Part shown: positions 9,872-60,708 of the stretch, piece after piece | How the letters are laid out: each line of letters opens with the position of its first letter | How positions within the stretch are numbered: position 1 is the stretch's first letter | Assembly: GCF_000002425.4 (NCBI RefSeq) | Contig: NC_037267.1 | Location: 9,003,398 to 9,067,397, forward strand | DNA: 64,000 bases | Source: Physcomitrium patens | Lineage: Eukaryota; Streptophyta; Bryopsida; Funariales; Funariaceae | Direction of reading: 5' to 3' | Made by a program: the position numbers and the translations under genes | Notes under the pieces: model-generated | What the model was told of the DNA's origin: nothing | Database searches by the model: none | The model's input: only the letters and a program-made list of their open reading frames with translations

Positions 9872-9911
9872 TGACCGCTCCTCGTGGAACTCGTCTCTAG
9901 AAGGGGGGTAA

Positions 9912-41517: not shown

Positions 41518-41535
41518 GATTAGAATTCCTCTTAA

Positions 41536-43061
41536 TAAATCGCTTATCTTCTATGTCAGAGAAGTTCAGTGGAAATAAGAAAGTAGATCTACCATACAAA
41601 GAAGTATTCGACTTATACGAGAAAAGGGATAAAGAGTCTATCGAGACTATTGCAAGATATTGTATAGAAGATTCATTACTAACGATTGCATTGTTCGATA
41701 GTATGAACATATGGGTCAGTGTGACAGAGATGTCAACTGTTGCAAGAACAAGAATTAGAGATCTCTATACCAGAGGCCAATAAATAAGAGTAAAGTCTCA
41801 GCTATACAAAGAGTGTTATGACAAAGGTGTTGTATTTGACAGAACACATTCTCTACTTGAAGAGTTTGAGTACGAAGGAGCTATAGTATCAAATCCTACT
41901 CCTGGACTCTATAAATGGTGTTTTTTACTTGACTTTTCAAGTTTGTATCCTTCTGTTATAATAAGTCATAACATATGCTACTTAACGTTTATTAAGAGGA
42001 ATTCTAATCAACCTTGCTTCACTGTGTAAGTATCTGATAAGAAGTCTTACATGTTTGCTAAAGAGCCTTTGGGATTAGTACCATCTCTGTTAAAGACATT
42101 AATACTAAAGAGAAAGGAAGTTAAGATACAATCTAGTACAGCTATAGGAATAGAAAAGGTAGTTCTTGAAAGGAGACAACTTGCTCTAAAGATATCAACT
42201 AATTCCGTATATGGTTCATATAGAACTCGCAACTCTTCATACTTATAGTTTATAGAAGGTGCAGAGTCCACAACAGCAATAGGTAGATTTATGCTTATGC
42301 ATGCATCAAGCATCATATCATCTAGATATCTAGTACAGCTAGTGTATGGTGACACTGACTCGTGTATGTTCACATCTGATACTGCTCAAGATTATGAATC
42401 ATGTAAAGCATTAGCTGTACGTATATCTAATGAGGTATCAAAAGAGTTTCTTTCACCTATAAAGCTTGAGTTCAAGGCTGTATTTGAAACATTCCTTTTA
42501 ATAACAAAGAAGAGATATATAGGACTTATAGCTGGTGAACGTAAGATGATATACAAGGGAGTTGTTGTATCCAGAAGAGATAGTTGCATATTTCTGAAGC
42601 ATATGTATTCGTCATTAGTAGAAATGATTATGAATTCATCACCATATGAGCATATAATGGAGTTTGTTAGAGCTGAGCTGTTGTCTCTAATAAGAGGTCA
42701 TATCCCTTTGGAAAGCTTAGTAATTACAAAGACATTAGAAAAAGAATATTCTAGTACTAGTACACCTTTGCTAGTGTATAGTAATAGATTGAAGGACCTA
42801 GGTATTGAAGCAAAGCCTGGTGATAAACTTGATTTCGTATTTGTTAACACCAAAGAAGAATTCAAGCTGCAAGGGTACAAAATGTGTCCACCTCACTTAA
42901 TATTGCCTCACAATCTTGAAATAGATTACTTATACTATATCGAGACTCATATATCTAATCCTATTGATCAAATCCTACAACTGTTAGGATAGAAATCTTT
43001 AGTGAAGGAATTCGCTGGTGCTATTAGAGGCTTAGCTATGGCATGAATTAACACTTATTAA
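41536..43061 (+). pseudogene. Family B DNA polymerase, left copy, 5'-truncated
   Basis: Viral replicative polymerase fragment. It begins at the host junction in what looks like the end of the exonuclease domain (L-S-S-M-S-E-K-F, then Y-C-I-E-D-S). It then holds palm motif A (D-F-S-S-L-Y-P-S, 41931), motif B (K-I-S-T-N-S-V-Y-G, 42189) and motif C (Y-G-D-T-D-S, 42345), all with catalytic residues present, and runs to the C-terminus. Stops in frame: TAA 41781, TAA 42027, TAG 42246, TAG 42990, then a TGA near 43044. All but the last are one C-to-T change from Gln codons. TAA 42027 and TAG 42246 are shared with the right copy; TAG 42990 is CAG there. The N-terminal half of a normal enzyme is missing. 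Confidence 0.93.
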
Positions 43062-43270
43062 AAAAATATATTTCTTTTAATATAAGGATTATAATATCTT
43101 GATTGAATCTTCTAATATATCAAACTCTTCATTAGCTTTAATTGAGAACCATCTTACTTTATGCTTTAAGTATGTGCAATTATATATTTGTCTTAGCATG
43201 TTGATGCTAAGTTCTTTTTTGTTGTAGTACTTAGTATCCTCTAGCTTTCCATGGCTTTGTATCTCAGCAA
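41992..43270 (+). repeat. Outer inverted repeat, left arm (polB plus FEN1 tail)
   Basis: 1279 bp, reverse complement of 59391-60670. It covers the 3' two-thirds of the polymerase fragment and the 3' end of the FEN1 gene. It is more diverged than the inner arms: more than 20 amino-acid differences in about 250 residues of polymerase. Most differences I inspected are C:G to T:A, with one single-base indel. Confidence 0.93.
43089..43270 (-). pseudogene. FEN1-type nuclease, left copy, 3' fragment only
   Basis: The last 61 codons of the FEN1-like gene (A-E-I-Q-S-H to I-K-I-L), matching 59391-59572. The rest was lost in the 6.6-kb deletion of the left arm. It reads open across the junction for a few codons only because of the tandem repeat. 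Confidence 0.9.
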
Positions 43271-43374
43271 AGATATTGTTAGACACACAAATTATCTCAG
43301 TGCAAAGATATTATTAGACACACAAATTGTCTCATGGTCCAAAGATATTGTTAGACACACAAATTATCTCAGTG
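43268..43374 (+). repeat. Tandem triplication at the deletion junction of the left arm
   Basis: Three units of 35-37 bases starting CAAAGATATT at 43268, 43303 and 43340. The third is the genuine edge of the inner arm (part of the D5 gene); the other two are extra copies. On the FEN1 side the sequence ends ATCTCAGCAA and the D5 unit ends ATCTCAGTGCAA. This microhomology joins two places that lie 6.6 kb apart in the right arm. Confidence 0.9.
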
Positions 43375-45023
43375 CAATCCTTGACTTCATTGGGTTCTTC
43401 AAGACCATAAGTTAGATATTGCTTGTACTCTTCTATCACCAATTTCATGAATACGGGAGCAAAAAAATGAATCTTATTGGAGAAGTTGATGTCCTTCAAG
43501 TGTGTTGTAAGAAGATCATGAGATAGTTCTATCTTGTCAACAAATGTTGATACAAATGGCATTATTCTAATTCTACTCCACACTGCTTTATCAAACATAC
43601 TCATTTGTGGAATCCTATTGGCAATGAGTATAAACTTTGCTGTCTGAGGTATGATGGTTCCTTCTTTGTATAGTCCTCTAACATAGAGACTATCATTGCC
43701 TGTAATCTCCTTCATAACACTAAGGTTGAGCTTGTTACCTTCATCAGGCTCTTGAACGAGAGCTATAAGTCTTCCTTTAAGCATTGCTAGCTCAGGAGTA
43801 GTTGTTGATGATTATACTCTCTTTTCCATAAGCAATGATGTTGGCATCTTTATTGCATAGTCTCCAAACACTTGTTCAATTAGAGAGACCATAATAGTCT
43901 TTCTGTTGTCTCCAGATCCTGACCATATAGAGAATATCTTGTTTGTGTTTCGTCCTTCTAAACATGATGAGATGAACCTCATAAAGTATCTTCTTATGTC
44001 CTCGTTAGAGAATACCTTTGCTAGGAGATCAAGAACCTCATTAGTTGCTTCTGAGTTATAATCAAGTGGTACAAATGAAATCCTAGTTGACAATGTAATA
44101 TAGTCATCTAGTTCCATCATTCTAAACCTATCTTCTGTAAAGTTGTACACACCACTTTTCATACCTATTACATCTCGTTTAGAGTCCAAGAGTTCTTCAA
44201 AGCCCTCTTTGTATAACATTCCAGCACAGGTATACATCATCTTCTTTCTATTGTCAGATGATTGTATAAAATCTATTATCTTAGTGGCAGGCTCGATGGT
44301 CTCCATGTAGGACTCGCATACATCTGTTATGAACCTATACATTCATGTGAGAATCTCCTTCATCATTGATGCTTTAGAGCTCTTTAGAGCCCACTTCTTG
44401 GTGTCGAAAAAATATAGGATTATCTTGTCAAAGTTGGAGCATACAAACTTGTCATCGTATATCACACAAAATATCTTTGAAGTAATAAGCTCAGGATTCT
44501 TAGGACATACGCATACTAAGTCCCTTACAATCTCCTTCTTTCTACTCTCTGAGCATTGTATACTGTAGATGTCGCAAGGCCATGTAGGTGATATCTTTGC
44601 ATACATGTCTTTCTTGCCTCTCTCTTCAAGTTCTATAATCCATGTGGAACAAGCTTCTACCATCGTACTGTAGTGCTTGCTCTTGTTGCAGCTTAGACCA
44701 AGATATCATACAGCATCATCGGCATCATTACAAGGAAAGCAGAACACTGCTTCCTCCACAATACAAGATTTATTGGTTGAGAATATAGCACTGGAACTGT
44801 TGGAAGTAATAGTTGTTAATGAAGATATTAGCTTGTAGTCTGTAGGTATTGTTGGGAAGAAGTAGACATAGGTATTCTCTTCTGATGTTTTAAAGGCTAC
44901 GCACATCCTATGCACATCTTCTACAATATACTTTCCATTGTAGGTATCAAGAAACTGTAACATTGGATCTTTAAATTGACCTTGAGAAAGCCCAAAAAGC
45001 TTTACAAAGATTGATGCCATCAT
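43337..45023 (-). pseudogene. D5-type SF3 helicase, left copy, 3'-truncated
   Basis: Mirror of the right-arm D5 gene, starting at ATG 45023, with the same stops at the same codons (106, 227 and 404). It loses the last 67 codons at the deletion junction. Few amino-acid differences separate it from the right copy (for example L/F, H/Y and N/D), each a C:G to T:A transition. Confidence 0.92.
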
Positions 45024-45120
45024 TGATGCAGTATCACATACGGTTGTAGCTGAAAGGATATCACTTCTGTGATTGCCAGGTATTATTGCCTATACATTGC
45101 AATATTGAACACCTGTAAAG

Positions 45121-45855
45121 ATGACCAAGATGTACAAAGGAAAGATGTTCTACGATACAATAAAAACTGGTCCGTTAAGTAATATCTTAATAGACAAGGA
45201 CAGATGTATAGTCCAACGAGTAGATGATGATGATAGGAGGTACTTTGCTTTCTTTGAAAGCTGGGAGTACTTCTTATTATGGTACAAAAGACTACTTCCT
45301 AGTGAGAGGAAGTTCTCAGAGGTTATAAGAGAAGGTCCTCAAAAGTTCAGACTTGATATAGATTGTCCTACTGATAAGTGGAACATGGAAACAAATGTTT
45401 TTATAGAACATATAACTTCTATCCTAGAGAAAATATTAAGAGAAAGAATAGATGTTTTTGTGTATCAAAGTATTGACAATAGTAATATGAAAGTATCTTT
45501 TCATGTTGTTGTTTCGAACTTGTACTTTGTCTCATTGCAACAATGCTTAGCAGTTGCTCATGTTGTACATAGTGCTACACACTTTGGTGATTTTATAGAT
45601 ATGGGAGTTTATAAGAGCTTACAGTGCTTTAGACTCGAAGGTAGTACTAAGCAAAGGTCTGATAGATTTAAATACCTAATAGGCAAGTACGATATATCGG
45701 AAAGATTTTTTGATGGTGTTATAACTAGTATTAGTAATTGTTTGCAATCTACACTACGTAACGTGCTTAGCAGACCTATTGTATCTTACTGTGAATACTT
45801 AAGCAAAGGAGTAAAGCATAGCAATATCAAAGGTATGCCGTTTCATACACTGTAA
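45121..45855 (+). CDS. Archaeo-eukaryotic primase (AEP), left copy, intact
   Basis: 244-residue frame with the same translation as the right copy (50261-50995). See that entry for motifs. It lacks any premature stop although its neighbours are broken. Divergent from the D5 copy on its left and convergent with ORF91. Confidence 0.75.
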   Translation: MTKMYKGKMFYDTIKTGPLSNILIDKDRCIVQRVDDDDRRYFAFFESWEYFLLWYKRLLPSERKFSEVIREGPQKFRLDIDCPTDKWNMETNVFIEHITSILEKILRERIDVFVYQSIDNSNMKVSFHVVVSNLYFVSLQQCLAVAHVVHSATHFGDFIDMGVYKSLQCFRLEGSTKQRSDRFKYLIGKYDISERFFDGVITSISNCLQSTLRNVLSRPIVSYCEYLSKGVKHSNIKGMPFHTL

Positions 45856-45947
45856 TCAGAAATGCAGGCAGTGCCTGATACTCTAATTGGCCAAAAAGAA
45901 AAATGTACTAGTTGTACCAATACATTTTTTTTTAATGAGAGGTCTAC

Positions 45948-46220
45948 TTATGTATCAAACATGTGCATTGTTCCTGCAATAGCTTTGCACATATCATTAT
46001 AGAATTTGGTATCATAAACTCTGAGATATTTTAAGCAATAGTAACATCCTTCACTTTTCTTTCTAATGTACTTTAGTATTCTAGTTCCATCATTAGCCTT
46101 GTCATAAAATAAAAAAGCCTAGATACAGTGCTTAAATACAAACTTCCAGTTGTTGTCTGGCAGATTTCCATCACATCTAATACACTTTACACCTCTAGCT
46201 TCGGATGAAGCATTTTCCAT
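45948..46220 (-). pseudogene. ORF91, small Cys-rich protein, left copy
   Basis: Mirror of 49896-50168 with the same internal TAG at codon 34, so that stop predates the duplication or was spread by conversion. Confidence 0.7.
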
Positions 46221-46399
46221 TGTAGAGTATGATAATTGTGATCTACTTAGCAACTACACGCTAATGCTAAGTTAATATACCAAAAATCAATCAGTAAAAT
46301 TCTTCTTAGTAAATTTTTTTGTTTATAACGTTGTGGGTGTAGCATGTGCCATTCAATAGTACAAAGTATTAAGTCACTAGCAATTTAGGCGCAGAAAGT

Positions 46400-47302
46400 A
46401 TGTCAACATATTGAGCTCCGTTATTGACAGTCCTTGATGGAAACAAAACACCAATGAAAAGTCTAATGACAGATAATGGGTGTAAAGTTCATCTTACAAA
46501 CAAGTACTGTGGATGGGGTCTAAAAGGGAATAAAAAGTCTTATGAGTAGTTTATCAAAGACTTTCCAGACCCAAATAAATGGAGCCTTCATAGTATTACA
46601 TCATATGGTATGGACTTTTTCATTACCAAGTATGCTGAAGTCATAAATGGCTCAAAGGAGCTATCCGTGTGGCCAGTACTCCTAGTGGAGGAAAAGTCTA
46701 CGTATCTGTTGAACAACGATGTGTTACTTCATCTCAAAGTAAAGTCTTTTCAGGAAGCTATAAATAATAATATCGTAAAGTGGACAAAGATCACTTCCTC
46801 AGCAATCTCCACTGTGATCTTTACAGGTGCAGAACAGATATGGAGATAATTTAGTAAATAGATCAAGCTGGTAAGTATTGTGGTTGCAGTAATTATCGAA
46901 AGTATTTTCTTTGCACTCCAATAGAAAAATGCAAAAGATAAGATAATTCATGTGGCTGCATTTATTGTTCAAGTAGGTCTCTGCATCGGTGGATTTATTG
47001 CGTATTGAGCTACGAAAGCAGTAATGATTGCAGCTGGATATTCATCAGCTATAGTAAGTATCGCAACGTTTGGTATAGATGCGGTAGTAGGTGTTACAAG
47101 TATGGCAGCAACTTACTTGTTTAATTGGCTAAGTACCAAAAACTCTCTAGGGCCTTTCTGTCCCTATTTGCGTTTCAAGGATGTATACTCACTATCATTC
47201 GAAATGAAAATATTTGAAGTAGTTTCATGCCTCATCAAGAGCATCAATGTTGAAACTTTTGGTATTCATGACATGAAGTACAAGCTAAAGTCCATTCACT
47301 AA
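46400..47302 (+). pseudogene. Multi-span membrane protein, left copy
   Basis: Mirror of 48814-49716. All five stops of the right copy are present, plus one more: a TAG at 46542-46544 where the right arm has CAG. Otherwise nearly identical (one V/I difference). Confidence 0.75.
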
Positions 47303-47392
47303 GAATCATACTAGTATCATATTATTATATGGTAGATAAAATGTTATAACATAGAAAAGGACGCCATGGTACATATATTATAAATTTTTTTT

Positions 47393-47921
47393 TTATACAT
47401 TATCTTTCTCATCCTTTATCTTAAATAGGCTCATATCCAGTGATGGAGTAGCTCTATCTACTAGCTCTACTACGGCTTTTGAAAGCTTACATTGTAGAGA
47501 AGCTCTACTACCAGACCAGAAGTACAAAGAGTCAAAGAGTAAAGCAGGATACATTCGATAATGAGTTCCTTCTAGAGACTTAGAATCTACCTTCTCTTGC
47601 TTTGTGTTGCAAAAGATTGTCCATACCTTCGAATCTTTGTTGCTTACAATAAGCTTTGCATACATTCGCATTGTTGTGATACCATCTTTTGTAAACTCTT
47701 TCAATGGATGCTTGAATATATCATCTATTGTATCCTTTGATACTTTGATATCAACATCTTTGGGATGCTTTATGATATATTCTTTCAGTGATCGTATATT
47801 GCATGGACATTGGCACAAAATGCATTCTCATTGGTATCTTTATTATTTTCTACACTTATGCTAATGCACGTATTCTTGCTTCCTTTGTTGCTAGATCCTG
47901 AAAAAGAATCATCTTGTATTC
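47393..47921 (-). pseudogene. ssDNA-binding-like protein, left copy, 5'-truncated and frameshifted
   Basis: Inverted copy of the 245-residue gene at 47986-48723. It lacks the first 69 codons, which lie in the unduplicated spacer, and carries a 1-bp deletion near 47787. It also differs by D/G, I/M and T/I, all transitions. This shows that the left arm is the derived copy. Confidence 0.9.
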
Positions 47922-48193
47922 TAAAGGAGTAGATGATAAATAAATAATACGACGTCATAGTATATATTATCAACATCAACTAGTCATGGCCTCTAAAAGG
48001 AGAGTTATATATGATTTGAATCCTTTGAATGTAATGTTTACACCTATAACAGATACATTCCAATTTTCCGGGTCAAAAGGAAAGTCTCCAATCCCATCTG
48101 CCGGAAAGAAAGTTGGTATATCATACAAAGCAGAGAATGGAATAAAGTACCCTTTGATACTAGCACCAAAAGGATGTATGTTCTACTTGTTAG
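47922..48193. repeat. Unduplicated spacer at the centre of the palindrome
   Basis: 272 bp present once. It holds the 5' end of the ssDNA-binding-like gene and its short upstream region (TATATATTATC-type sequence before the ATG at 47986). In a folded transcript or cruciform it would be the loop. Confidence 0.9.
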
Positions 48194-48723
48194 GAATACA
48201 AGATGATTCTTTTTCAGGATCTAGCAACAAAGGAAGCAAGAATACGTGCATTAGCATAAGTGTAGAAAATAATAAAGATACCAATGAGAATGCATTTTGT
48301 GCCAATGTCCATGCAATATACGATCACTGTAAAGAATATATCATAAAGCATCCCAAAGATGTTGGTATCAAAGTATCAAAGGATACAATAGATGATATGT
48401 TCAAGCATCCATTGAAAGAGTTTACAAAAGATGGTATCACAATAATGCGAATGTATGCAAAGCTTATTGTAAGCAACAAAGATTCGAAGGTATGGACAAT
48501 CTTTTGCAACACAAAGCAAGAGAAGGTAGATTCTAAGTCTCTAGAAGGAACTCATTATCGAATGTATCCTGCTTTACTCTTTGACTCTTTGTACTTCTGG
48601 TCTGGTAGTAGAGCTTCTCTACAATGTAAGCTTTCAAAAGCCGTAGTAGAGCTAGTAGATAGAGCTACTCCATCACTGGATATGAGCCTATTTAAGATAA
48701 AGGATGAGAAAGATAATGTATAA
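47986..48723 (+). CDS. Intact 245-residue viral protein, possibly a ssDNA-binding protein
   Basis: Complete ATG-to-TAA frame with no internal stop. It starts in the palindrome spacer and runs into the right arm. The pattern is that of a compact beta-rich protein: Y-P-L-I-L-A-P-K, then I-S-I-S-V, a long helical middle, V-W-T-I-F-C-N, and a C-terminal segment (Y-R-M-Y-P-A-L-L-F-D-S-L-Y-F-W) ending in a short acidic tail (K-D-E-K-D-N-V). A beta-barrel core with an acidic tail is what the T7 gp2.5-like SSB family reported in large DNA viruses looks like, and the gene lies among replication genes. I do not recognise the family with certainty. Convergent with the membrane-protein gene, with an A/T hairpin between. 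Confidence 0.65.
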   Translation: MASKRRVIYDLNPLNVMFTPITDTFQFSGSKGKSPIPSAGKKVGISYKAENGIKYPLILAPKGCMFYLLGIQDDSFSGSSNKGSKNTCISISVENNKDTNENAFCANVHAIYDHCKEYIIKHPKDVGIKVSKDTIDDMFKHPLKEFTKDGITIMRMYAKLIVSNKDSKVWTIFCNTKQEKVDSKSLEGTHYRMYPALLFDSLYFWSGSRASLQCKLSKAVVELVDRATPSLDMSLFKIKDEKDNV

Positions 48724-48813
48724 AAAAAAAATTTATAATATATGTACCATGGCGTCCTTTTCTATGTTATAACATTTTATCTACCATATAATAATATGAT
48801 ACTAGTATGATTC

Positions 48814-49716
48814 TTAGTGAATGGACTTTAGCTTGTACTTCATGTCATGAATACCAAAAGTTTCAACATTGATGCTCTTGATGAGGCATGAAACTACTTC
48901 AAATATTTTCATTTCGAATGATAGTGAGTATACATCCTTGAAACGCAAATAGGGACAGAAAGGCCCTAGAGAGTTTTTGGTACTTAGCCAATTAAACAAG
49001 TAAGTTGCTGCCATACTTGTAACACCTACTACCGCATCTATACCAAACGTTGCGATACTTACTATAGCTGATGAATATCCAGCTGCAATCATTACTGCTT
49101 TCGTAGCTCAATACGCAATAAATCCACCGATGCAGAGACCTACTTGAACAATAAATGCAGCCACATGAATTATCTTATCTTTTGCATTTTTCTATTGGAG
49201 TGCAAAGAAAATACTTTCGATAATTACTGCAACCACAATACTTACCAGCTTGATCTATTTACTAAATTATCTCCATATCTGTTCTGCACCTGTAAAGATC
49301 ACAGTGGAGATTGCTGAGGAAGTGATCTTTGTCCACTTTATGATATTATTATTTATAGCTTCCTGAAAAGACTTTACTTTGAGATGAAGTAACACATCGT
49401 TGTTCAACAGATACGTAGACTTTTCCTCCACTAGGAGTACTGGCCACACGGATAGCTCCTTTGAGCCATTTATGACTTCAGCATACTTGGTAATGAAAAA
49501 GTCCATACCATATGATGTAATACTATGAAGGCTCCATTTATTTGGGTCTGGAAAGTCTTTGATAAACTGCTCATAAGACTTTTTATTCCCTTTTAGACCC
49601 CATCCACAGTACTTGTTTGTAAGATGAACTTTACACCCATTATCTGTCATTAGACTTTTCATTGGTGTTTTGTTTCCATCAAGGACTGTCAATAACGGAG
49701 CTCAATATGTTGACAT
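48814..49716 (-). pseudogene. Multi-span viral membrane protein, function unknown
   Basis: A 301-codon frame from the ATG at 49716 (M-S-T-Y), interrupted at codons 5 (TGA), 150 (TAA), 154 (TAG), 175 (TAG) and 203 (TGA). Each is one C-to-T step from CGA, CAA or CAG, with no frameshift. Residues 1-150 are polar with scattered Cys and Trp. Three hydrophobic stretches follow: about 155-174 (L-V-S-I-V-V-A-V-I-I), about 182-202 (A-A-F-I-V-Q-V-G-L) and about 209-240 (I-A-A-G-Y-S-S-A-I-V), then a soluble tail. This fits a virion or internal membrane protein. No family recognised. Confidence 0.7.
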
Positions 49717-49895
49717 ACTTTCTGCGCCTAAATTGCTAGTGACTTAATACTTTGTACTATTGAATGGCACATGCTACACCCACAACGTTATAAACAAAAA
49801 AATTTACTAAGAAGAATTTTACTGATTGATTTTTGGTATATTAACTTAGCATTAGCGTGTAGTTGCTAAGTAGATCACAATTATCATACTCTACA

Positions 49896-50168
49896 ATGGA
49901 AAATGCTTCATCCGAAGCTAGAGGTGTAAAGTGTATTAGATGTGATGGAAATCTGCCAGACAACAACTGGAAGTTTGTATTTAAGCACTGTATCTAGGCT
50001 TTTTTATTTTATGACAAGGCTAATGATGGAACTAGAATACTAAAGTACATTAGAAAGAAAAGTGAAGGATGTTACTATTGCTTAAAATATCTCAGAGTTT
50101 ATGATACCAAATTCTATAATGATATGTGCAAAGCTATTGCAGGAACAATGCACATGTTTGATACATAA
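49896..50168 (+). pseudogene. ORF91, small Cys-rich (zinc-ribbon-like) protein
   Basis: A 91-codon frame, M-E-N-A-S-S to F-D-T-stop, with one internal TAG at codon 34 that would be CAG before a C-to-T change. Cys pairs C13-I-R-C16 and C59-Y-Y-C62, with H31-C32 between, suggest zinc binding. In viruses of this kind small zinc-ribbon proteins are often transcription or packaging factors; the role here is unknown. It is convergent with the primase gene, with a hairpin in the gap. Confidence 0.6.
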
Positions 50169-50194
50169 GTAGACCTCTCATTAAAAAAAAATGT

Positions 50195-50220
50195 ATTGGT
50201 ACAACTAGTACATTTTTCTT
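50195..50220. terminator. Hairpin between ORF91 and primase genes
   Basis: AAAAATGTA at about 50187-50195 pairs with TACATTTTT downstream, with a 13-base loop that is itself partly self-complementary (GGTACAACTAGTAC). It lies in the convergent gap 50169-50260, mirrored in the left arm at about 45900-45930. Confidence 0.4.
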
Positions 50221-50260
50221 TTTGGCCAATTAGAGTATCAGGCACTGCCTGCATTTCTGA

Positions 50261-50995: not shown

Positions 50996-51092
50996 CTTTA
51001 CAGGTGTTCAATATTGCAATGTATAGGCAATAATACCTGGCAATCACAGAAGTGATATCCTTTCAGCTACAACCGTATGTGATACTGCATCA
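50996..51092. promoter_or_regulatory. Divergent promoter region between primase and D5
   Basis: 97 bp separating two start codons on opposite strands, duplicated in the left arm (45024-45120). It is less AT-rich than other gaps. It must hold both upstream regions if the genes were expressed from their own promoters. No motif is recognised with confidence. Confidence 0.4.
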
Positions 51093-52979
51093 ATGATGGC
51101 ATCAATCTTTGTAAAGCTTTTTGGGCTTTCTCAAGGTCAATTTAAAGATCCAATGTTACAGTTTCTTGATACCTACAATGGAAAGTATATTGTAGAAGAT
51201 GTGCATAGGATGTGCGTAGCCTTTAAAACATCAGAAGAGAATACCTATGTCTACTTCTTCCCAACAATACCTACAGACTACAAGCTAATATCTTCATTAA
51301 CAACTATTACTTCCAACAGTTCCAGTGCTATATTCTCAACCAATAAATCTTGTATTGTTGAGGAAGCAGTGTTCTGCTTTCCTTGTAATGATGCCGATGA
51401 TGCTGTATGATATCTTGGTCTAAGCTGCAACAAGAGCAAGCACTACAGTACGATGGTAGAAGCTTGTTCCACATGGATTATAGAACTTGAAGAGAGAGGC
51501 AAGAAAGACATGTATGCAAAGATATCACCTACATGGCCTTGCGACATCTACAGTATACAATGCTCAGAGAGTAGAAAGAAGGAGATTGTAAGGGACTTAG
51601 TATGCGTATGTCCTAAGAATCCTGAGCTTATTACTTCAAAGATATTTTGTGTGATATACGATGACAAGTTTGTATGCTCCAACTTTGACAAGATAATCCT
51701 ATATTTTTTCGACACCAAGAAGTGGGCTCTAAAGAGCTCTAAAGCATCAATGATGAAGGAGATTCTCACATGAATGTATAGGTTCATAACAGATGTATGC
51801 GAGTCCTACATGGAGACCATCGAGCCTGCCACTAAGATAATAGATTTTATACAATCATCTGACAATAGAAAGAAGATGATGTATACCTGTGCTGGAATGT
51901 TATACAAAGAGGGCTTTGAAGAACTCTTGGACTCTAAACGAGATGTAATAGGTATGAAAAGTGGTGTGTACGACTTTACAGAAGATAGGTTTAGAATGAT
52001 GGAACTAGATGACTATATTACATTGTCAACTAGGATTTCATTTGTACCACTTGATTATAACTCAGAAGCAACTAATGAGGTTCTTGATCTCCTAGCAAAG
52101 GTATTCTCTAACGAGGACATAAGAAGATACTTTATGAGGTTCATCTCATCATGTTTAGAAGGACGAAACACAAACAAGATATTCTCTATATGGTCAGGAT
52201 CTGGAGACAACAGAAAGACTATTATGGTCTCTCTAATTGAACAAGTGTTTGGAGACTATGCAATAAAGATGCCAACATCATTGCTTATGGAAAAGAGAGT
52301 ATAATCATCAGCAACTACTCCTGAGATAGCAATGCTTAAAGGAAGACTTATAGCTCTCGTTCAAGAGCCTGATGAAGGTAACAAGCTCAACTTTAGTGTT
52401 ATGAAGGAGATTACAGGCAATGATAGTCTCTATGTTAGAGGACTATACAAAGAAGGAACCATCATACCTCAGACAGCAAAGTTTATACTCATTGCCAATA
52501 GGATTCCACAAATGAGTATGTTTGATAAAGCAGTGTGGAGTAGAATTAGAATAATGCCATTTGTATCAACATTTGTTGACAAGATAGAACTATCTCATGA
52601 TCTTCTTACAACACACTTGAAGGACATCAACTTCTCCAATAAGATTTATTTTTTTGCTCCCGTATTCATGAAATTGGTGATAGAAGAGTACAAGCAATAT
52701 CTAACTTATGGTCTTGAAGAACCCAATGAAGTCAAGGATTGCACTGAGATAATTTGTGTGTCTAACAATATCTTTGGACAGTTCTTAAGTGCTAATGTTG
52801 AGAAGAATAACAAGAATATAGTTGCTATAAAAGAGCTGTATGATCTCTACAAGTACTGGTCAAAGGACATGTTTCCAATAATGAAAGTAAAAGATATATC
52901 ATCCCTACGACAGTATCTAGTCAAGAACTTATAAACTATAGATGCTGTAGATCAGATTCCAGGATTATCTCTACTGTAA
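51093..52979 (+). pseudogene. D5-type SF3 helicase, right copy
   Basis: A 629-codon frame. The N-terminal part (to about residue 230) is poorly conserved. The D5-N-like region follows, then the SF3 helicase: Walker A G-S-G-D-N-R-K-T (369-376), Walker B V-Q-E-P-D-E (423-428) and a sensor asparagine in I-L-I-A-N (469). The Gly before the Walker A lysine is Arg (AGA; GGA in the family), a G-to-A change likely to harm ATP binding. Stops at codons 106 (TGA), 227 (TGA), 404 (TAA) and 614 (TAA) all fit C to T. The D5 helicase unwinds the viral replication fork as a hexamer. Convergent with the 2OG oxygenase gene. Confidence 0.92.
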
Positions 52980-52982
52980 CTA

Positions 52983-53004: not shown

Positions 53005-53144
53005 TCCTATACAAATTATAACAGTGTTTTAGAATTTTACAACAGTTGATGTTTTAAATACCACAATATGTTAAACGTTCTATAGCCCTATTTATTGTCT
53101 CGCAGTAGAAAAGCTATATCAATATGGTAAATAACAGATTAACT

Positions 53145-54014
53145 TCATAGAACCAAAGGCGTATGACTACTCTTCTTCCCAATAAAGCACGAGAAAGAGA
53201 CTCTTCTTCCTTTCGTGATACTCTCTATTGCATGAACGTTGTGGAAATTAAAGAAAATCAACTCTCCTACTTGAGGAATTATACTTATACTCCTCTAGGA
53301 TAAATAGCTTTCATTAATACTATAAGAGCTACTATCTTGAAACAATTCATACTCTTCTTTGCGTAGAGTTGTTGGCTATATCACAAGATCTCTACCATTG
53401 TCAACAACGGATAAGTGCACATTAGTAGCTAATTGTGCCTCCACTTCACGACTCTCGATGTCATTTGGGGCATCCCAGGAGAATACATCCATATGTGGTT
53501 TTGCTTCTGATCCCTCTTTGAATATTCTTACAAGTCCACAGAACAGCTTCTTGTTATTGAGACATACGATTGATGCACCGTGTGGCTAGAGTTCATCTAG
53601 TTCAAGCCTTAGTTTGTCAATAGGTGACATATAAGGATTTATCTGTGCTCTTATTTGTTGTATCCACTCAACTGCTTTGTGGTCGTAGTATTTACGCTTC
53701 TCAATGCAGTCTGAAGTATCAAAAAGAATCATACCAACACGTGCTATACTCTCTGCCTCTGATTGAGTATAATTACCATACAAGGGACTGTTGATGATGC
53801 TCTGGACTATCACGTGTATGTGCTTAGGATCATAAAAAGAACTAATACGAAGAGCTGTAGTTCTGCCTTCTATCAAGTCACATAGGTCACTCAAATGCAG
53901 TTTGTCCTTCTCGACTATTATTCCAAACTTAGTCTGATTTCCTTGAAAAATATGAATAGGTGTTAGTTCTTTTGATTCTGGGATACAAGCACAACATAGC
54001 AGCGTAGACATCAT
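53145..54014 (-). pseudogene. 2OG-Fe(II) oxygenase-like protein
   Basis: A 290-codon frame with three TAG stops (codons 143, 213 and 240). The C-terminal half carries the double-stranded beta-helix signature of the 2-oxoglutarate and Fe(II)-dependent oxygenase superfamily: H174-M-D176 (iron ligands), distal H261 in F-N-F-H-N-V-H-A, and R270/R271 in G-R-R-V-S-F-S, which would bind 2-oxoglutarate. The N-terminal 140 residues (C-C-A-C-I-P-E, then I-H-V-I-V-Q) are unfamiliar. Such enzymes hydroxylate proteins or nucleic acids and occur in several large DNA viruses. Substrate unknown. The ORF visible up to the first stop contains none of the catalytic residues. Confidence 0.82.
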
Positions 54015-54161
54015 GGCCTTTAATTGTGCTGCAGCATCAAACTCTTATTTCGATTTGGTTGAAGATGTACAAGACCAAGACAACTTTACTAAGGAGAATC
54101 AATATCCAAGTCCTTTGGTGATACAAAAAAAACTTTTTTATATGAGCGCAAGAACATTTGT

Positions 54162-54824
54162 TCATTGTAGAAGAACGACTTCATATCTTATTCTAATCTT
54201 TTCTTTGATCTTCTTTATGGATACTACGTCAATGGCTCCAATGTCTTTTATATGTTCAACATGTGTCCCTCCATAAGGAATAGCCTGATAATTGCCAATC
54301 TTAAGTACTCGACTGGAGAATGGATCTGCAATTATTTGTATGAGTGCATCATTTGATACAATATCTTTCAGCTTTACATATAAGTCCTCTTTCAATTTCT
54401 TAGTGAGAGGGGCACCCTAAAAATCAACTCGTGCCTCGCTTGAAAATTGGTGTCCCGAAACGATATTTAGGCCCATGTCACTATCTGCCTCAATGACAGA
54501 TGCAATCAAATGTCCAGCAGTATGATAACAGGTGTTAACTCGCCGCCATTGGACATTGATAATGAATGGATACTCTTTACCAACAGATAGTCCATCAACA
54601 GTATCAATGAAGTGGTTGACTACTCTATTTTCTCTGTACTTTACATCGATGACATTGGCATGTACAATTCTTCCACGATCGCCTTTTTGACTACCACCCT
54701 AAGCATGAAACCATGTCTTCTCGACATGCATAATTGGTTTCTGAGAGTCAACGATGATCTTTGAGATTCTCACTAATTTCGGTAGCATTTGAGATTCTAC
54801 AAGATATTGCTTTATGGTGGCCAT
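54162..54824 (-). pseudogene. AlaX-type aminoacyl-tRNA editing protein
   Basis: A 221-codon frame from the ATG at 54824. It has the editing-domain zinc site of alanyl-tRNA synthetase and its free-standing AlaX relatives: H101-T-A-G-H105, and G-G-T-H188-V. The second motif is normally Cys-G-G-T-H; here the Cys is Tyr184 (TAT from TGT, a G-to-A change), so a metal ligand is lost. An N-terminal G-G-S-Q-K-G-D-R-G stretch matches the conserved GGQ-GD-G turn of the family. Stops lie at codons 42 and 136 (both TAG). AlaX proteins hydrolyse mischarged Ser- or Gly-tRNA(Ala). It is an unusual cargo for a large DNA virus. Same strand as the 2OG gene, 147 bp upstream. Confidence 0.85.
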
Positions 54825-55463
54825 AATGGGCACTTGCTATCAGTAGGAGGATAAGAAAGTACTTCAGGCTAAGAAAACATCTTAAGTGTACATTCAGTTT
54901 TCAATACTATGAACGTTTGCACCCCGTATAGGTGATATGAATAAATAACTATTAATGAAGAAAGATAGCAATAGTACAGTTAATGTAGATGAATTATACA
55001 ACAATCGTAGGTCTTGGTCGATAAATATATTTTTAACAATAAAAACAAGGGATACATTATTTCTTAAAAAAAAAGTATATACAATAGCATATTTGTCAAG
55101 CATGATATTCTACACAAAGCTTATATAACTTTCAAACTTTATTACTAGAGATACGTACAAAGTATTAACTAGATTGAACAGCACGTATTAGTATCAATAG
55201 ATAATACGTACCCCTTAACTTAGTCGTTAGAGAAAGCATTTCGGTCCCTGATTTAAAAGATAATAGTTTCAACCCTGCTCTGCTTGGATATCTTTTTACT
55301 TCAAGTTTATGTCCAAGAAGTCCTCCAAACAGAAACACTTTATCAAACCATGTATTCAAACTCAAGTCACCTAAAGTCTTCTATGTCATAACCTCGAGCT
55401 CTAGAACACTTCAACTTTGATACCATCGCGGATAATGCCGTTTTCTATAACAAATACTAACGA
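54825..55463. other. Gap without a clear gene in the viral segment
   Basis: AT-rich. A 64-codon plus-strand frame at 54937-55128 (M-N-K, TAA at codon 4, then open to L-I-stop) could be a small decayed gene of the same C-to-T type. A 66-codon minus-strand frame at 55165-55365 has no recognisable features. A tRNA-like stretch lies at about 55211-55277. Nothing else is supported. Confidence 0.35.
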
Positions 55464-56984
55464 TCAAAATCTTTGCTTGCTAGTCCACATTTCGTACTTC
55501 TTAGATCTAGGTGTAAGACATTCAATGAATCTTGGAAAGTAATCTCCAACAACAGATCCTTTGGAACAATCAGAGTCATATTCTTCATTGTCACCTTCGT
55601 AGGGATTATCCTTGTTCTTTATTACCAGATTGTTACTAAATGTGGACTTTCTAATTCTTTGTCCATCTTGAAGCCTTTTAAGTATCTTGTCATCACGGGA
55701 GTTCTATTTCTTGTGTACGTATATTGTTTTAGTTATTGTATTTGTTTCATAGTAACGATGATCTGCTGGATTAAAGAATTCCTCAGGTTTTCTTCTACTT
55801 CTTATCATACTCTCTTTTAGTCTATCATTAGGTAACTTAGTTGCAATGCCTGTTGGTACAAATGGAATACATTTCTCCTTCATTTCTTCTTTGTATATCC
55901 TCATACTGAGTCCAATACGATCTAGATTTTGTTTATCCATCAATGGTATTTCTCCATTTATAGTCAATTCAAATCTTTCATCGTACTTATGATTAGGTGT
56001 AGCTCTATATTCTTCTCTTCTTTCACAATACTCACCAATGGATATTATTCTTATCCATTGATGAATATGAGGATGCTTAACTTGGAACTCCTTGAGTGAA
56101 TCGTACTCTTCTTGTGTTGTCATTGCTCGTATGTTATCCCACGCTTCTTCAACACATTCATTTGGTAGTATGGGATACATTCTCTCATTGACCATCCTGC
56201 ACTGTAGGTTCCATTTATCTCGATATTGGTAAGGAATCATTCCTGACTCTTCAGCTTCTTTTATATGTTCTTATGTAGGAGGTTGATCAAGAATTGCTTC
56301 TGTCTCCCTCTCTTCTTCCTCTTTCATCTTTACGGCTACTTTCAACTTTGTAACGTCCTGCTTTATTCCTCTGGATAGATTCTCTCTACCTTGTTCGAAC
56401 CTATCTGGATGAATCGATGGCACTGCTACACAATCATCAAGTATAGGTATCTTTATTCCTTTTTCTTTTAATCTGTTAAGGTAAGGTTGAGCTTCACAAA
56501 GCTTTCTTATAGATTCGTCTCTGTCATGCAAGGTATCAAATGCTTTAGGAACTGCATTTAAACCATTGGGGCGATAGTTTCTATGAACACCATAAAATGA
56601 TGAACTTGGTTTTGCAAGATGTTTACATTGTCTCTTTTGTAGCGTGTAGTTGTGAACTATTGCTTTACAACATTTTGGCTTTTGTACAACACCATCTTTG
56701 TCAACTACAATTGCTCTCTTGTGTCAACTGCAAAAAGGAGTATTGTCCTTTATTTTGTTCAAACACCTTGAATCTTTGTTTGGTCCTGTAGCAAGTGTTG
56801 CTTCATATTTAGAATCAGATGGAAGTGTCTTTGGAGCTGCAGTACCTCGAGGAGTCTTACCAGTCTTGCTAAAGTACTCGACCAATTCATCAAAGATCTG
56901 TTGCTTCATGTGAAGTAAGACTTCTATAAGAACGTTTTGGATCTCCTACATTACTGCATCTTTGATTGCTTGAATGTCCGACAT
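55464..56984 (-). pseudogene. Large viral ORF (507 codons), function unknown
   Basis: One continuous frame from the ATG at 56984 (M-S-D-I-Q-A-I-K) to a TGA at 55464-55466, interrupted at codons 13 (TAG), 87 (TGA), 238 (TAA) and 427 (TAG), all C-to-T compatible. Visible features: a Cys/His cluster at about residues 85-135 (C85, H88, then P-K-C-C-K and R-Q-C-K-H), which may bind zinc; a charged helical stretch before codon 238 (K-M-K-E-E-E-E-R); and a basic region after residue 380. No membrane span. I do not recognise it. Its size and composition would fit a virion or DNA-associated protein, but that is a guess. Confidence 0.7.
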
Positions 56985-57195: not shown

Positions 57196-57705
57196 TCAAG
57201 CATTGTCAGTCATGGTATCTTGCTCCTCTACAATATCTGCCTCGCGTACCAATCTCATGTCACGCTTGAGCTCATCGAGTGAAGAGCATACGTATATAGT
57301 ATGTTCTTCTATGATGGACATTAGCTCCTTAGCGCTTGTCCTATATATGGTATCGTGAGGGTTATTAGCTGCAATTACAACAATCTCATTGCTATTTATT
57401 TGTACTTCTTCAGGGACATTATTGAGTACAATGTAGTTATTCATATTGGTAATCTTCTCACGTATTTCTTCTATCTGTGTAAATAGAAAACCACCACTTT
57501 TTTTTGTACATTTGTTGATTAGACCCATGACATACTCTAGGTCATCACGAGATACCTTAAGACCACTAGTAATGTGGTTCTCGAGAATAGTACTAATACC
57601 GTCTATGGCCTTCGCTGTTGCTACAGCACATCTCTCAGATGCATCCACTTTCTTTTCTAGTGAGGATATCTTATTCTCTACAAAAGACATTATTCTATTT
57701 TCCAT
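57196..57705 (-). CDS. Viral coiled-coil protein, 169 residues, unknown function
   Basis: Intact ATG-to-TAA frame (M-E-N-R-I-M-S-F). The first 60 residues are heptad-like (I-S-S-L-E-K-K-V) and likely form a coiled coil. The middle has I-E-E-I-R-E-K-I-T, and the C-terminus is acidic (V-E-E-Q-D-T-M-T-D). No catalytic motif. It lies in a run of four minus-strand viral genes. Confidence 0.65.
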   Translation of the reverse strand: MENRIMSFVENKISSLEKKVDASERCAVATAKAIDGISTILENHITSGLKVSRDDLEYVMGLINKCTKKSGGFLFTQIEEIREKITNMNNYIVLNNVPEEVQINSNEIVVIAANNPHDTIYRTSAKELMSIIEEHTIYVCSSLDELKRDMRLVREADIVEEQDTMTDNA

Positions 57706-57739
57706 CGAAGAGAGCTGACATGTCCTGAGAGGGTGGTTG

Positions 57740-58099
57740 CTACTTTGGTGCTTTAGGTCTGATACTAAAAGTGCTAGACTTTAGCGCAGGAGCTTGCACA
57801 TCCTTCCCATTATTAGATCGCAAGAGGATACCTATAGGTCTATTAGCAAATACAAACAATAAACTTTGTAAGTCCACTTTATTACTTAGCTTGAATGGCA
57901 TTGCATCAAACCTCATCCTTAGTGGCTCCACATCATCCTCGTCAGAAGATGCTTCATGCTTATGTAGCTGGCTGCTACTATACATAAAAGCTTGTGACAG
58001 GGGATGGTGATCCTCTCCTTCATCATCTGCCCATCTTGTTGCACCCTTCTTCAAAGCATCAGCCTTGACCTGGAAGGAACTAAAGAACTTTGAAGCCAT
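57740..58099 (-). CDS. Viral protein, 119 residues, unknown function
   Basis: The ATG at 58099 (M-A-S-K-F-F-S-S-F) is chosen. The open frame extends 31 codons upstream, but that extension is hydrophobic and AT-rich and probably non-coding. The protein is intact, with an acidic stretch (S-S-D-E-D-D-V-E) in the middle and a basic, Pro/Lys-rich C-terminus (R-P-K-A-P-K). Family not recognised. Confidence 0.55.
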   Translation of the reverse strand: MASKFFSSFQVKADALKKGATRWADDEGEDHHPLSQAFMYSSSQLHKHEASSDEDDVEPLRMRFDAMPFKLSNKVDLQSLLFVFANRPIGILLRSNNGKDVQAPALKSSTFSIRPKAPK

Positions 58100-58199
58100 A
58101 GTATGTATGTTAAACAAAACAATAAAACAATGAAACAACAATATCGTATATATTATATAGACTATGGACATAGGAGCATAGGAACATGTCACTAGACCA

Positions 58200-58505
58200 T
58201 CACAGCTCCAATAATCTTTTCAATTTTTTTGATGGAGTTTCTACTCTTATAGCAGTTGATGTCGTAATAAAAGGAGGCAAAGATGATCCTTTCTTACCTG
58301 CAAGAAACACATTGTTGTCTTAGACGCATATCTTTCGTATAATCTTTATTTTGTCCTTTTCAAATTGCACATCGTCTGTCTTGATCATACCCAATTTCAA
58401 ATAAACTAAAATGATACTAGCGCCCTTTTCGAGATCCTTGCCTAATAATCTAGTGTTGATCTCGAGATATTCTTTTACAACATTTCTTGCAATTAGCTTT
58501 GCCAT
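58200..58505 (-). pseudogene. Small viral ORF, 102 codons, unknown function
   Basis: From the ATG at 58505 (M-A-K-L-I-A-R-N) to a TGA at 58200-58202, with one TAA at codon 62 that would be CAA before a C-to-T change. Lys-rich, with no domain recognised. It lies back to back with the FEN1 gene, leaving 122 bp for both promoters. Confidence 0.55.
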
Positions 58506-58627
58506 TTTGACATATATAATAATCTTGCTATTATATTCATATTGATACAATATCATTATTGTCTATAGTAAGCACAAAGGTATTTCAGTCCACCACATTG
58601 GTAAGAAATTAGAATACTAAAACCATC

Positions 58628-59572
58628 ATGTCTCCAACTGGCATTTCAACGTTGTTATCTCCTTTGATACAAAGAGTGTCCTTATACAAAATAGAACGCA
58701 TGAAGATTGCTCTTGACATTAATGCTTTGACGTTCATTATGTCCAAGTGTGTGATACATCATCGTATAAAAAAGAAATTCTCTTTAAAGGAAGCTAACGA
58801 TGTGCTACATCATGATGAGTTCAAAAGGGCAGAGTATGGTTCATACTGTATCGACACAATAAAGAAAGCAATGGAAATCCTAAGAGATGAATTCTATTGT
58901 ATCTTTCTGTTCGATGGAAAAATATCTCCTGAGAAATAATTAGAGATGGAAAGAAGATCAAAGAAACTTATGGGAGCGAAAGAAACATTAGCGACAATGA
59001 GAAGGTTATTCCAGCACGATACATCAAACAAAAGAAACACAAAGCAGTACTATGATGCAATCTTTGAATGTATAGAGCTAAGCATATCGGAGGCTCCTAC
59101 ATCTCTTGATGTATGTGTAGTAGGAGAATATGAAGCAGATGTTACATGTGCTCATATGTACCAAAGCGGAGAAGTAGATGCCGTACTAAGTAGTGACTAT
59201 GATAGCTTGTTATTTGGATGTCCTTATCAAATAAAGGACATTGACATGATAGAAAGATATGCAGATGTTGTAACACTATAGAGTATATACGGTCATTTCA
59301 ATATAGACCGCTTCCAAGCAATAGACATGTGTATTCTAATGGATACAGACTATAATAAGAAGATCAACAGGGTAGGGCCTAAGACAACTCTTGCTGAGAT
59401 ACAAAGCCATAGAAAGCTAGAGGATACTAAGTACTACAACAAAAAAGAACTTAGCATCAACATGCTAAGACAAATATATAATTGCACATACTTAAAGCAT
59501 AAAGTAAGATGGTTCTCAATTAAAGCTAATGAAGAGTTTGATATGTTAGAAGATTCAATCAAGATATTATAA
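58628..59572 (+). pseudogene. XPG/FEN1-family flap endonuclease
   Basis: A 315-codon frame from the ATG at 58628. The N-terminus G-I-S-T-L-L matches the family's M-G-I start region. All the acidic catalytic positions of the Rad2/XPG fold seem present: D30 (A-L-D-I-N), D96 (F-L-F-D-G), E169 and D171 (Y-E-A-D), D190 and D192 (S-D-Y-D-S-L) and D241 (M-D-T-D-Y), followed by a helix-hairpin-helix-like G-P-K-T-T-L-A. Stops lie at codons 104 (TAA) and 218 (TAG). FEN1-like nucleases remove RNA primers and flaps during viral DNA replication. Its last 61 codons lie in the outer inverted repeat. Convergent with the polymerase gene. Confidence 0.92.
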
Positions 59573-59600
59573 TCCTTATATTAAAAAAAAATATATTTTT
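59573..59600. terminator. A/T hairpin between FEN1 and polymerase genes
   Basis: Between the two stop codons a long A run is followed by a T run (TATTAAAAAAAAATATAT then TTTTTTTAAT). These are near-perfect inverted halves. The left-arm copy lies at about 43060-43080. Similar A/T foldbacks sit in other convergent gaps of the insert. A 3'-end or transcript-termination signal is likely by analogy with the hairpins at mimivirus gene ends. Confidence 0.45.
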
Positions 59601-60668
59601 TTAATAAGAGTTAATTCCTGCCGTAGTTAAGCCCCTAATAGCACTAGCGAATTCCTTCACTAAAGATTTCTGACCTAACAGTTGTAGGATTTGATCAATA
59701 GGATTAGATATATGAGTCTCGATATAGTATAAGTAATCTACTTCAAGATTGTGAGGCAATATTAAGTGAAGTGGACACATTTTGTATCCTTGTAGCTTAA
59801 ATTTTTCTTTGGTCTTAACAAATATGAAATCAAATTTATCACCGGGCTTTGCTTCAATACCTAGGTCTTTCAATCTATTGCTATATACTAGCAAAGGTGT
59901 ACTAGTACTAGAATATTCTTTTTCTAATATCTTTGTAATTACTAAGCTTTCCAAAGGGATATGACCTCTTATTAGAGACAACAGCTCAACTCTAACAAAC
60001 TCCATTATATGCTCATATGGTGATGAATTCATAATCATCTCTACTAATGACGAATACATATGCTTCAGAAATATGCAACTATCTCTTTTGGATACAACAA
60101 CTTCCTTGTATATCATCTTACGTTCACCAGCTATAAGTCTTATATATCTCTTCTTTGTTATTAAAAGGAATGTTTCAAATACAACCTCGAACTCAAGCTT
60201 TACAGGTGCAGGAAACTTTTTTGATACCTCATTAGATATATGTACAGCAAATGCTTTACATGATTCATAATCTTGAGCAGTATCAGATGTGAACATACAC
60301 GAGTCAGTGTCACCATACACTAGCTGTACTAGATATCTAGATGATATCATGCTTGATGCATGCATAAGCATAGATCTACCTATTGCTGTTGTGGACTGTG
60401 CACCTTCTATAAACTATAAGTATGAAGAGTTACGAGTTCCATATGAACCATATACAAAATTAGCTGATATCTTGAGAGCAAGTTGTCTCCTTTCAAGAAC
60501 TACCTTTTCTATTCCTATAGCTGTATTAGATTGTATCTTAACTTCCTTTCTCTTTAGTATTAATGTCTTTAATAGAGATGGCACTAATCCCAAAGGCTCT
60601 TTAGCAAACATGTAAGACTTCTTATCAGATACTTACACAGTGAAGCAAGGTTGATTAGAATTCCTCTT

Positions 60669-60670
<2 letters not shown>
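59601..60670 (-). pseudogene. Family B DNA polymerase, right copy, 5'-truncated
   Basis: Mirror copy, shorter: it starts just after motif A at the right host junction. Motif B is altered (K-I-S-A-N-F-V-Y-G instead of N-S-V-Y-G), and motif C Y-G-D-T-D-S is intact. The C-terminus is open (L-L-G-Q-K-S) and ends with TAA at 59601-59603. It shares two premature stops with the left copy. Substitutions against the left copy are largely amino-acid-changing and transition-type (GGA to AGA, CCT to CTT), as expected for relaxed decay. It is convergent with the FEN1 gene. Confidence 0.93.

Positions 60671-60708
<38 letters not shown>

What the first reader, a model, noticed from the sequence alone, without database searches (positions are those of the whole stretch)
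41518..60670. Endogenised giant-virus-type segment in a plant-like genome
Seen: adjacent intron-free genes for family B polymerase, D5-type helicase, AEP primase, FEN1-type nuclease, AlaX and a 2OG oxygenase, flanked by retroelement relics. Known: these replication genes are hallmarks of Nucleocytoviricota, and footprints of giant-virus relatives have been reported in mosses and lycophytes. Inference: a past infection or ingestion event left a 12.7-kb genome fragment that was later inverted and duplicated. Both host junctions cut through the polymerase gene, so a fragment integrated rather than a whole genome.
Basis: partly seen in the sequence, partly recalled or inferred. Interest (0 to 1): 0.9.

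Follow-up and report, generated by a model that had tools for sequence, protein, structure and literature searches.

The report
Giant-virus fossil in a moss genome
A stretch of moss chromosome holds the decayed, mirror-duplicated remains of giant-virus replication genes, a kind already known from this moss, and sister copies elsewhere in the genome suggest that the ancient viruses carried exchangeable extra genes, one of them from a land-plant family.

Summary
The segment is real. It lies in Physcomitrium patens or a very near relative, where endogenous giant-virus DNA is already in print. polB, D5 helicase, FEN1, an AlaX domain and a 2OG-oxygenase-like gene are present and broken by stops; the AEP primase is not confirmed. 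polB groups with metagenomic relatives, apart from the named cellular polymerases.

The locus is an inverted duplication made after integration: both flanks carry the same copy of a dispersed moss repeat. The 'two junctions through polB' are one junction, copied.

18 of 18 other polB loci examined carry the same region. Differences between copies concentrate at third codon positions (142 of 209 pairs at p<0.001), but not within palindromes, so several diverged virus strains were probably endogenised.

The unexpected part is window 53017-55462, between D5 and the next viral ORF. Cargo there differs between loci: 2OG+AlaX here, DUF247 plus a secreted-type ORF, or a protein kinase. DUF247 is described as land-plant specific; of five DUF247 loci found in the moss, four adjoin this slot in virus blocks. 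That suggests gene capture from plants.

The parts
41411..41517 (.). left host flank: dispersed moss repeat, same copy as the right flank
41519..41539 (.). 21-nt inverted copy of 41988-42008 at the host-virus junction
   Evidence: seen, exact match checked
41540..42992 (+). polB, truncated at its N-terminal side and broken by stops (left copy)
43089..43270 (-). FEN1 C-terminal scrap, end of outer arm (41992-43270)
43337..47921 (.). left inner arm of the palindrome (D5, putative primase, unknown ORF, truncated DUF2738)
43332..44342 (-). D5-type helicase pieces (left copy)
   Evidence: DUF5906 1.8e-5 below cut-off, D5_N 4.8e-8
45121..45855 (+).
47922..48193 (.). unpaired centre of the palindrome
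47986..48723 (+). DUF2738 gene, open frame
   Evidence: 1.2e-9
48194..52779 (.). right inner arm of the palindrome
50261..50995 (-). putative primase ORF, right copy; not confirmed
   Evidence: same sequence as the left copy
51774..52934 (+). D5-type helicase pieces (right copy)
   Evidence: C962R, 3e-7
53017..55462 (.). variable slot between D5 and the next conserved viral ORF; no other match in the genome covers 53100-55122
53376..54044 (-). 2OG-oxygenase-like gene in two pieces
54162..54698 (-). AlaX-type editing domain gene in two pieces
   Evidence: tRNA_SAD 8e-6 in the C-terminal piece
55464..56945 (-). conserved viral ORFs of unknown function; their end is the slot's right edge
57196..58192 (-). 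conserved viral ORFs of unknown function (open as 311 aa at locus C25)
58613..59572 (+). FEN1-type nuclease in pieces
59601..60670 (-). polB C-terminal part (right copy), part of the outer arm 59391-60670
60692..60799 (.). right host flank: inverted copy of 41411-41517

Best explanation
A stretch of the genome of a moss-associated giant virus (pithovirus-like according to the literature) integrated into a moss chromosome beside a dispersed moss repeat, with a junction inside polB. The chromosome later copied the integrated stretch together with about 100 bases of host flank as an inverted duplication centred in the DUF2738 gene; the left arm then lost the stretch from FEN1 to the slot. The inner arms were homogenised or copied much later. 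The replication genes are decaying and the locus is an inert fossil. It is one of at least 19 such loci, which descend from several diverged virus strains. Shown: kinship of polB, embedding in host DNA, duplication of the host flank, stops, codon signature. Inferred: the order of events, gene conversion, end-joining integration (from a 21-nt inverted copy at the junction), inertness.
For: Pfam and PDB matches; polB tree, moss rows one clade with metagenomic rows, in a set of 59 rows (support 100) without any named cellular row; flank repeat 92% alike between the two ends, 80% or less to the 38 other listed copies; outer arms 50 of 1280 mismatches, inner arms 11 of 4449; 18 of 18 other loci examined carry the region; third-position excess at p<0.001 in 142 of 209 pairs and at p 0.001-0.05 in 53 more, absent within both palindromes.
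Against: No virus name stands on any row of the tree, so the family is taken from the literature. The capsid search was uninformative. The pairs of the codon test are not independent; 7 of the 14 pairs without clear excess join different groups of loci, and two copies (C25, C2b) show a third-position excess in private changes too. Single-event duplication with later conversion and two separate duplications fit the arms about equally well. No reads were seen, so the palindrome rests on the assembly.
Confidence: 0.87

Rival explanations
1. One virus insertion was multiplied by the moss (segmental duplication or transposition), so all loci descend from a single event.
For: Some groups of loci differ without third-position excess, as copies of one insertion would: C6-C1b-C14, C15b-C2c, C11b-C8. 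Moss copies form one clade.
Against: Third-position excess in 142 of 209 pairs at p<0.001 and in the sums of five other ORFs (0.40-0.49); different cargo at the same slot; polB-side ends at 11 different distances among the copies compared.
Confidence: 0.1
2. The palindrome is viral: terminal inverted repeats or a head-to-head replication intermediate that integrated as such.
For: A second locus, C13:10769936-10792262, also has polB in inverted arms around D5 and DUF2738.
Against: The window's arms include the same moss repeat copy on both sides, which a viral repeat would not; most other polB loci listed show a single polB; both palindromes differ in centre and extent and their arms are closer to each other than to the other palindrome.
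Confidence: 0.08
3. The DUF247 genes near the viral blocks are ordinary moss genes trapped between two insertions, or copied along with one, and say nothing about the virus.
For: DUF247 is described as a land-plant family, and one moss locus (C5) shows no virus sequence in the 4.4 kb fetched. A moss repeat is inserted in the DUF247 region of C10a and C1.
Against: DUF247 lies next to the same viral ORF or next to D5 at four loci: both edges seen at C1 and C13, one edge at C10a (ORF) and at C18 (D5), with junctions at win 55463-55465 and 52999-53016. C1 DUF247 is only 34-44% identical in protein to the others beside D5 that is about 91% identical, which copying by the host would not give. Viral DUF247 is AT-rich like the virus genes (0.36-0.38 against 0.52 at C5).
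Confidence: 0.25

Closest known systems
NCLDV-like regions of Physcomitrium patens (Maumus et al. 2014; Lang et al. 2018; neither was held, seen only as cited)
   Same: Same host, giant-virus polB and D5, silenced and methylated relics according to papers that cite them (passages)
   Different: I could not read them, so I cannot say whether the palindromes, the strain signature or the variable slot with DUF247 are described there
Putative Pithoviridae / Pimascovirales (Gallot-Lavallee and Blanc 2017; Sphagnum virus MAGs 2025)
   Same: The moss DNAP and D5 are placed with putative Pithoviridae, with MCP, ATPase and VLTF3 columns empty (Table 1); Sphagnum MAGs related to the moss remnants lie in Pimascovirales (passages)
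   Different: My tree has no named member of these groups, so membership is not tested here
Giant endogenous viral elements (GEVEs) of algae and protists
   Same: Integrated giant-virus DNA with transposon invasion, duplication and decay (abstract of the Euglena paper PMC12455990 in a search listing)
   Different: Here fragments of the same region at many loci, two of them palindromic; no near-complete element seen
DUF247 plus secreted-partner pairs of the grass self-incompatibility loci
   Same: A DUF247 gene close to a gene for a secreted protein of no known family, with high diversity (passages of PMC9825253)
   Different: Analogy only: no sequence link between the secreted partners was tested, and the viral genes are broken

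Membership tests
Nucleocytoviricota | family B polymerase that groups with viral, not cellular, enzymes | tested here: met
   88 rows chosen from the 141 at hand (139 proteins, one moss ORF, one IMG/VR ORF); separated from all 17 named cellular rows by a branch with support 100; viral identity of the neighbouring rows is inferred, only L001 comes from a virus collection
Nucleocytoviricota | D5-type primase-helicase | tested here: met
   D5_N 4.8e-8; C962R of a solved structure 3e-7; helicase part only
Nucleocytoviricota | major capsid protein | tested here: inconclusive
   PF16903 has no match in the moss genome, but the control rang in none of 14 genomes
Nucleocytoviricota | packaging ATPase and VLTF3 | not tested
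   VLTF3 request unanswered; ATPase not asked
Pithoviridae-like / Pimascovirales | polB and D5 nested with named members | not testable with these tools
   no named members among the hits; literature only
Endogenous giant-virus element | viral DNA joined to host chromosomal DNA | tested here: met
   flanks are a dispersed moss repeat (40 matches listed); reads not available
Endogenous giant-virus element | silencing by cytosine methylation or small RNA | not testable with these tools
   literature only (passages)
DUF247 (PF03140), for the cargo at other loci | profile match over the curated cut-off | tested here: met
   C13 5e-23, C18 1.3e-23, C10a 3.3e-20, C1 1.2e-11, C5 1.5e-12

The most novel reading that the evidence does not exclude
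The viruses behind these fossils carried a hypervariable cargo slot between D5 and the next gene, and one of the cargoes was a land-plant gene, DUF247, followed by a fast-diverging secreted-type protein. The virus would then have taken genes from plants and truly infected plants, and most DUF247 genes of this moss would be viral relics. A published reading that takes the single moss DUF247 gene as outgroup of the plant family (passages of PMC10221614) would need checking for viral origin.
Probability: 0.55. Interest if true: 0.78.

Novelty: new member of a known kind. Interest (0 to 1): 0.57.

Why it matters
No giant virus of land plants has been isolated to my knowledge (recalled). A plant-family gene inside the fossil genomes would be evidence that such viruses infected plants rather than passing by. 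The codon-position test separates change in the virus from change in the moss, which makes the number of strains and the order of integrations open to estimation. polB relatives with full-length reading frames, 81-83% identical, exist in public assemblies, so a present-day lineage may be findable.

Tried and rejected
Capsid search with PF16903: no match, uninformative. Prokaryote genomes with the 2OG piece: nothing. Single-sequence model of the AEP ORF: mean pLDDT 39, not used. I first read the drop from 95% to 99.7% near 47783 as a conversion edge; it is the ragged end of the arm, so the p value printed rests on a wrong split and is replaced by that (11 of 4449 against 50 of 1280, p 4e-23). 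I suspected that the secreted-type ORF beside the moss's own DUF247 (C5) is kin to the viral one: 38 to 160 of 500 shuffles scored as high, not supported, while the DUF247 parts are kin (0 of 500). A C-X8-C-X2-C (DUF26-like) reading of the secreted ORF is a recalled motif; Pfam did not support it. Viral terminal repeats as the cause of the palindrome: rejected for the window because. Papers: Maumus 2014 and Lang 2018 are not held, so I cannot say what they contain. A search for DUF247 with 'giant virus' gave 0 papers; one asking for any two of DUF247, NCLDV, Nucleocytoviricota and 'endogenous viral' gave 191 papers, 8 listed, DUF247 in none of these 8.
Full report
What was checked. The window is contig 15, 9003398-9067397, of a 470-Mb assembly in 101 contigs. 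The closest named proteins to its polB are Physcomitrium patens records at 82-91%, so the host is that moss or a very near relative. Stop-to-stop pieces match DNA_pol_B, D5_N, DUF5906 (below its cut-off), XPG_I, DUF2738 and tRNA_SAD. The D5 piece finds the C962R protein among solved structures (E 3e-7), the nuclease piece FEN1 and EXO1. The 2OG reading rests on a 37% relative with PF13640 at 1.6e-6. The AEP reading has no support beyond position.

Anatomy. From left to right: moss repeat 41411-41517; a 21-nt inverted copy (41519-41539) of 41988-42008; polB cut at 41540; a FEN1 scrap ending at 43270; an inner arm 43337-47921 with D5 and the putative primase; an unpaired centre 47922-48193; the mirror arm 48194-52779; the slot; conserved ORFs; FEN1; polB ending at 60670; the same moss repeat inverted at 60692-60799. 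Outer arms differ at 50 of 1280 sites, the flank repeat by about 8%, the inner arms at 11 of 4449 sites (p 4e-23 for inner against outer). The flank query has 40 listed matches in the genome (81 candidates, 40 scored). Apart from the window's own stretch, the other end of the element is 92% alike (107 nt), the 38 others 80% or less. So moss DNA was copied along with the virus DNA: the duplication followed integration, and both visible junctions are one junction. The inner arms are younger or were homogenised by gene conversion; I cannot separate these two.

A second palindrome. C13:10769936-10792262 is also an inverted duplication with polB towards both ends (arms 97.0% over 5968 nt, the part compared with the window's outer arm 99.0%). 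Its arms are nearer to each other than to the window's (91%), so it arose separately.

Copies. Of 45 polB matches in the genome, three of them in or next to already counted places, I fetched the surroundings of 18 loci outside the window (20 stretches). All 18 match the window's viral segment on the polB side, over 664-1737 nt at 76-93%. The remaining matches, mostly short, were not examined; some are surely the moss's own polymerases. Upstream of polB, 15 of these loci and the window were compared (C14, C2c and C3 were left out): they are colinear and end at about 0.15, 0.34, 0.45 (window left), 0.67, 0.68, 0.73, 1.1, 1.6, 3.2, 3.7 and 3.8 kb, the others running to the end of the stretch. Retroelements interrupt or adjoin several.

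Several strains. Differences between polB copies were counted by codon position on 21 rows. Of 209 pairs with at least 200 codons and 20 differences, 142 have a third-position excess at p<0.001, 53 at p 0.001-0.05, and 14 none at p>0.05. Those 14 include both palindromes (C13: 22/19/20; window: 12/11/16), the trio C6-C1b-C14, C15b-C2c and C11b-C8, but also seven pairs across other loci (C10b-C14, C2c-C16b, C11a with both C13 arms and with C2c, C1b with the window's right copy and with C3). Five other ORFs show third-position shares of 0.40-0.49 in the sum over pairs, the C13 arms not in the three ORFs they share. Among 19 rows (C11b and C8 left out) informative sites are 48% third-position and changes private to one copy 38%; private changes of C25 (13 of 19) and C2b (47 of 102) are in excess too. 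Pairs share data and are not independent. The simplest reading is that most differences between loci arose while the genes still worked, in viruses, and most private changes after integration, so several strains entered the genome.

Kin. A full-length polB reading frame open at locus C25 found 521 proteins among 7997 scored candidates, 120 listed: moss records; P0021 and P0022 at 83% and 81% with frames of 849 and 844 aa on contigs of 28 and 8 kb (sources 'lgn' and 'ena', which I take for public read or sequence archives); proteins at 41-51% (P0026-P0028, P0030-P0034); then others near 30%. In a tree of 88 rows (86 listed proteins, the C25 frame and the polB of IMG/VR locus L001; quick method, the tool warns of long branches) the six moss rows are one clade (100), next to P0022 and P0021 (100), then the 41-51% set (99), then L001 (99). 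All these lie in a set of 59 rows (100) that holds none of the 17 named cellular rows. No row carries a virus name, so I could not place the clade among known families. Gallot-Lavallee and Blanc 2017 (passages and Table 1) list the moss DNAP and D5 as putative Pithoviridae; a 2025 Sphagnum study (passages) finds related virus MAGs.

The slot. Searching the genome with 53100-59300 gave 37 matches including itself; 11 of the other 36 start at window 55442-55484, and none covers 53100-55122. Reading other loci shows why. Homology to the window stops at 55452-55484 in 8 of 8 loci whose fetched stretch reaches it (C1, C13, C10a, C10b, C16b, C25, C14, C2 at 11.67 Mb) and resumes at 52999-53016 in 3 of 3 where D5 was seen (C1, C13, C18). 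C10b shares a further 55 nt at 55372-55426. Between these edges lie: here, 2OG and AlaX genes; at C13, C18 and C1, a DUF247 gene followed by a secreted-type ORF, then D5; at C10a, DUF247 split by a moss repeat, which also stands in the C1 slot; at C16b and C14 a protein kinase (6e-29 and 3e-18), at C2 DNA 86% alike to that of C16b, with a TPR match below cut-off in the next ORF of C16b; at C25 and C10b only short unnamed ORFs. The D5 side was not seen at C10a, C16b, C14, C2, C25 and C10b, and the ORF side was not seen at C18, so these have one known edge. At C14 the conserved ORF and polB lie 17 kb apart and I take them for one block. C14 has the kinase like C16b but groups with C6 and C1b in polB, which hints at exchange of cargo between strains.

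DUF247. The whole genome has 7 matches at 5 loci (a lower bound by the tool's words): C1, C10, C13 and C18 in virus blocks, and C5, whose 4.4 kb of surroundings show no virus sequence. C5 is GC-rich (0.52) where viral copies are 0.36-0.38; its DUF247 part is kin to the viral ones (0 of 500 shuffles as good). C13, C18 and C10a are 90-92% alike in DNA in this gene; C1 is 34-44% identical to them in protein although D5 beside it is about 91% identical. polB of C1 and C13 differ with a moderate third-position excess (56/43/78, p 0.002). The family is described as almost unique to land plants, with three sequences in mycorrhizal fungi and one gene in P. patens taken as outgroup (passages of PMC10221614); another paper counts more moss orthologues (passages of PMC11941796). 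Which locus the single published gene is, I did not determine. In grasses DUF247 genes and a secreted partner form the self-incompatibility loci (passages of PMC9825253); the resemblance is an analogy only.

How it most likely works. As it stands the window segment is a fossil: polB, D5, FEN1, 2OG and AlaX are interrupted here, while the DUF2738 frame is open. In the living virus the slot would have been a place where accessory genes came and went. DUF247, a membrane-type protein in plants, with a secreted partner, would fit a role at the plant cell surface, for instance in recognition or in blocking re-infection; that last step is a guess.

Verdict. As an endogenous giant-virus segment it is a new member of a known kind in a species already known for it. 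The slot with plant-type cargo is the part worth following.

Noticed in passing
L020:706-1549, L118:2066-3148, L117:770-3115, L113:1437-2746: DUF247, a land-plant family, inside or beside giant-virus blocks at four of the five DUF247 loci found in the moss genome.
   Followed up: yes
L111:119-1825, L115:4034-4822, L116:307-2384: A protein kinase gene stands in the same slot at three other loci; at one of them a second kinase-like ORF follows (L116:3019-3999, by eye).
   Followed up: partly
G000:C13:10769936-10792262 (L019-L021): A second, separate inverted duplication of the same viral region.
   Followed up: partly
P0021, P0022: polB relatives at 83% and 81% with full-length frames in public assemblies; their hosts and neighbouring genes are unknown to me.
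   Followed up: no
P0008 (UniProt A0A2K1JUM7): A P. patens polB record only 47% identical to the window's, perhaps a second virus lineage.
   Followed up: no
L029 (C11:9614000-9623900) and L030 (C8:10766000-10775900): Two loci about 21% different from each other without third-position excess, and 20-23% from the rest: an older or faster-decaying pair.
   Followed up: no
window 4082-10472: Retroelement with reverse transcriptase, RNase H, integrase and protease pieces; relatives at 92-96% interrupt or adjoin viral loci at C10b, C14 and C2c.
   Followed up: no
P0140: A 96% relative of the 2OG-like protein on a 2.6-kb contig of source 'lgn', possibly another moss accession.
   Followed up: no
L013:6933-7853: Next to polB at locus C25: an ORF with DUF5757 (1.5e-29).
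   Followed up: no
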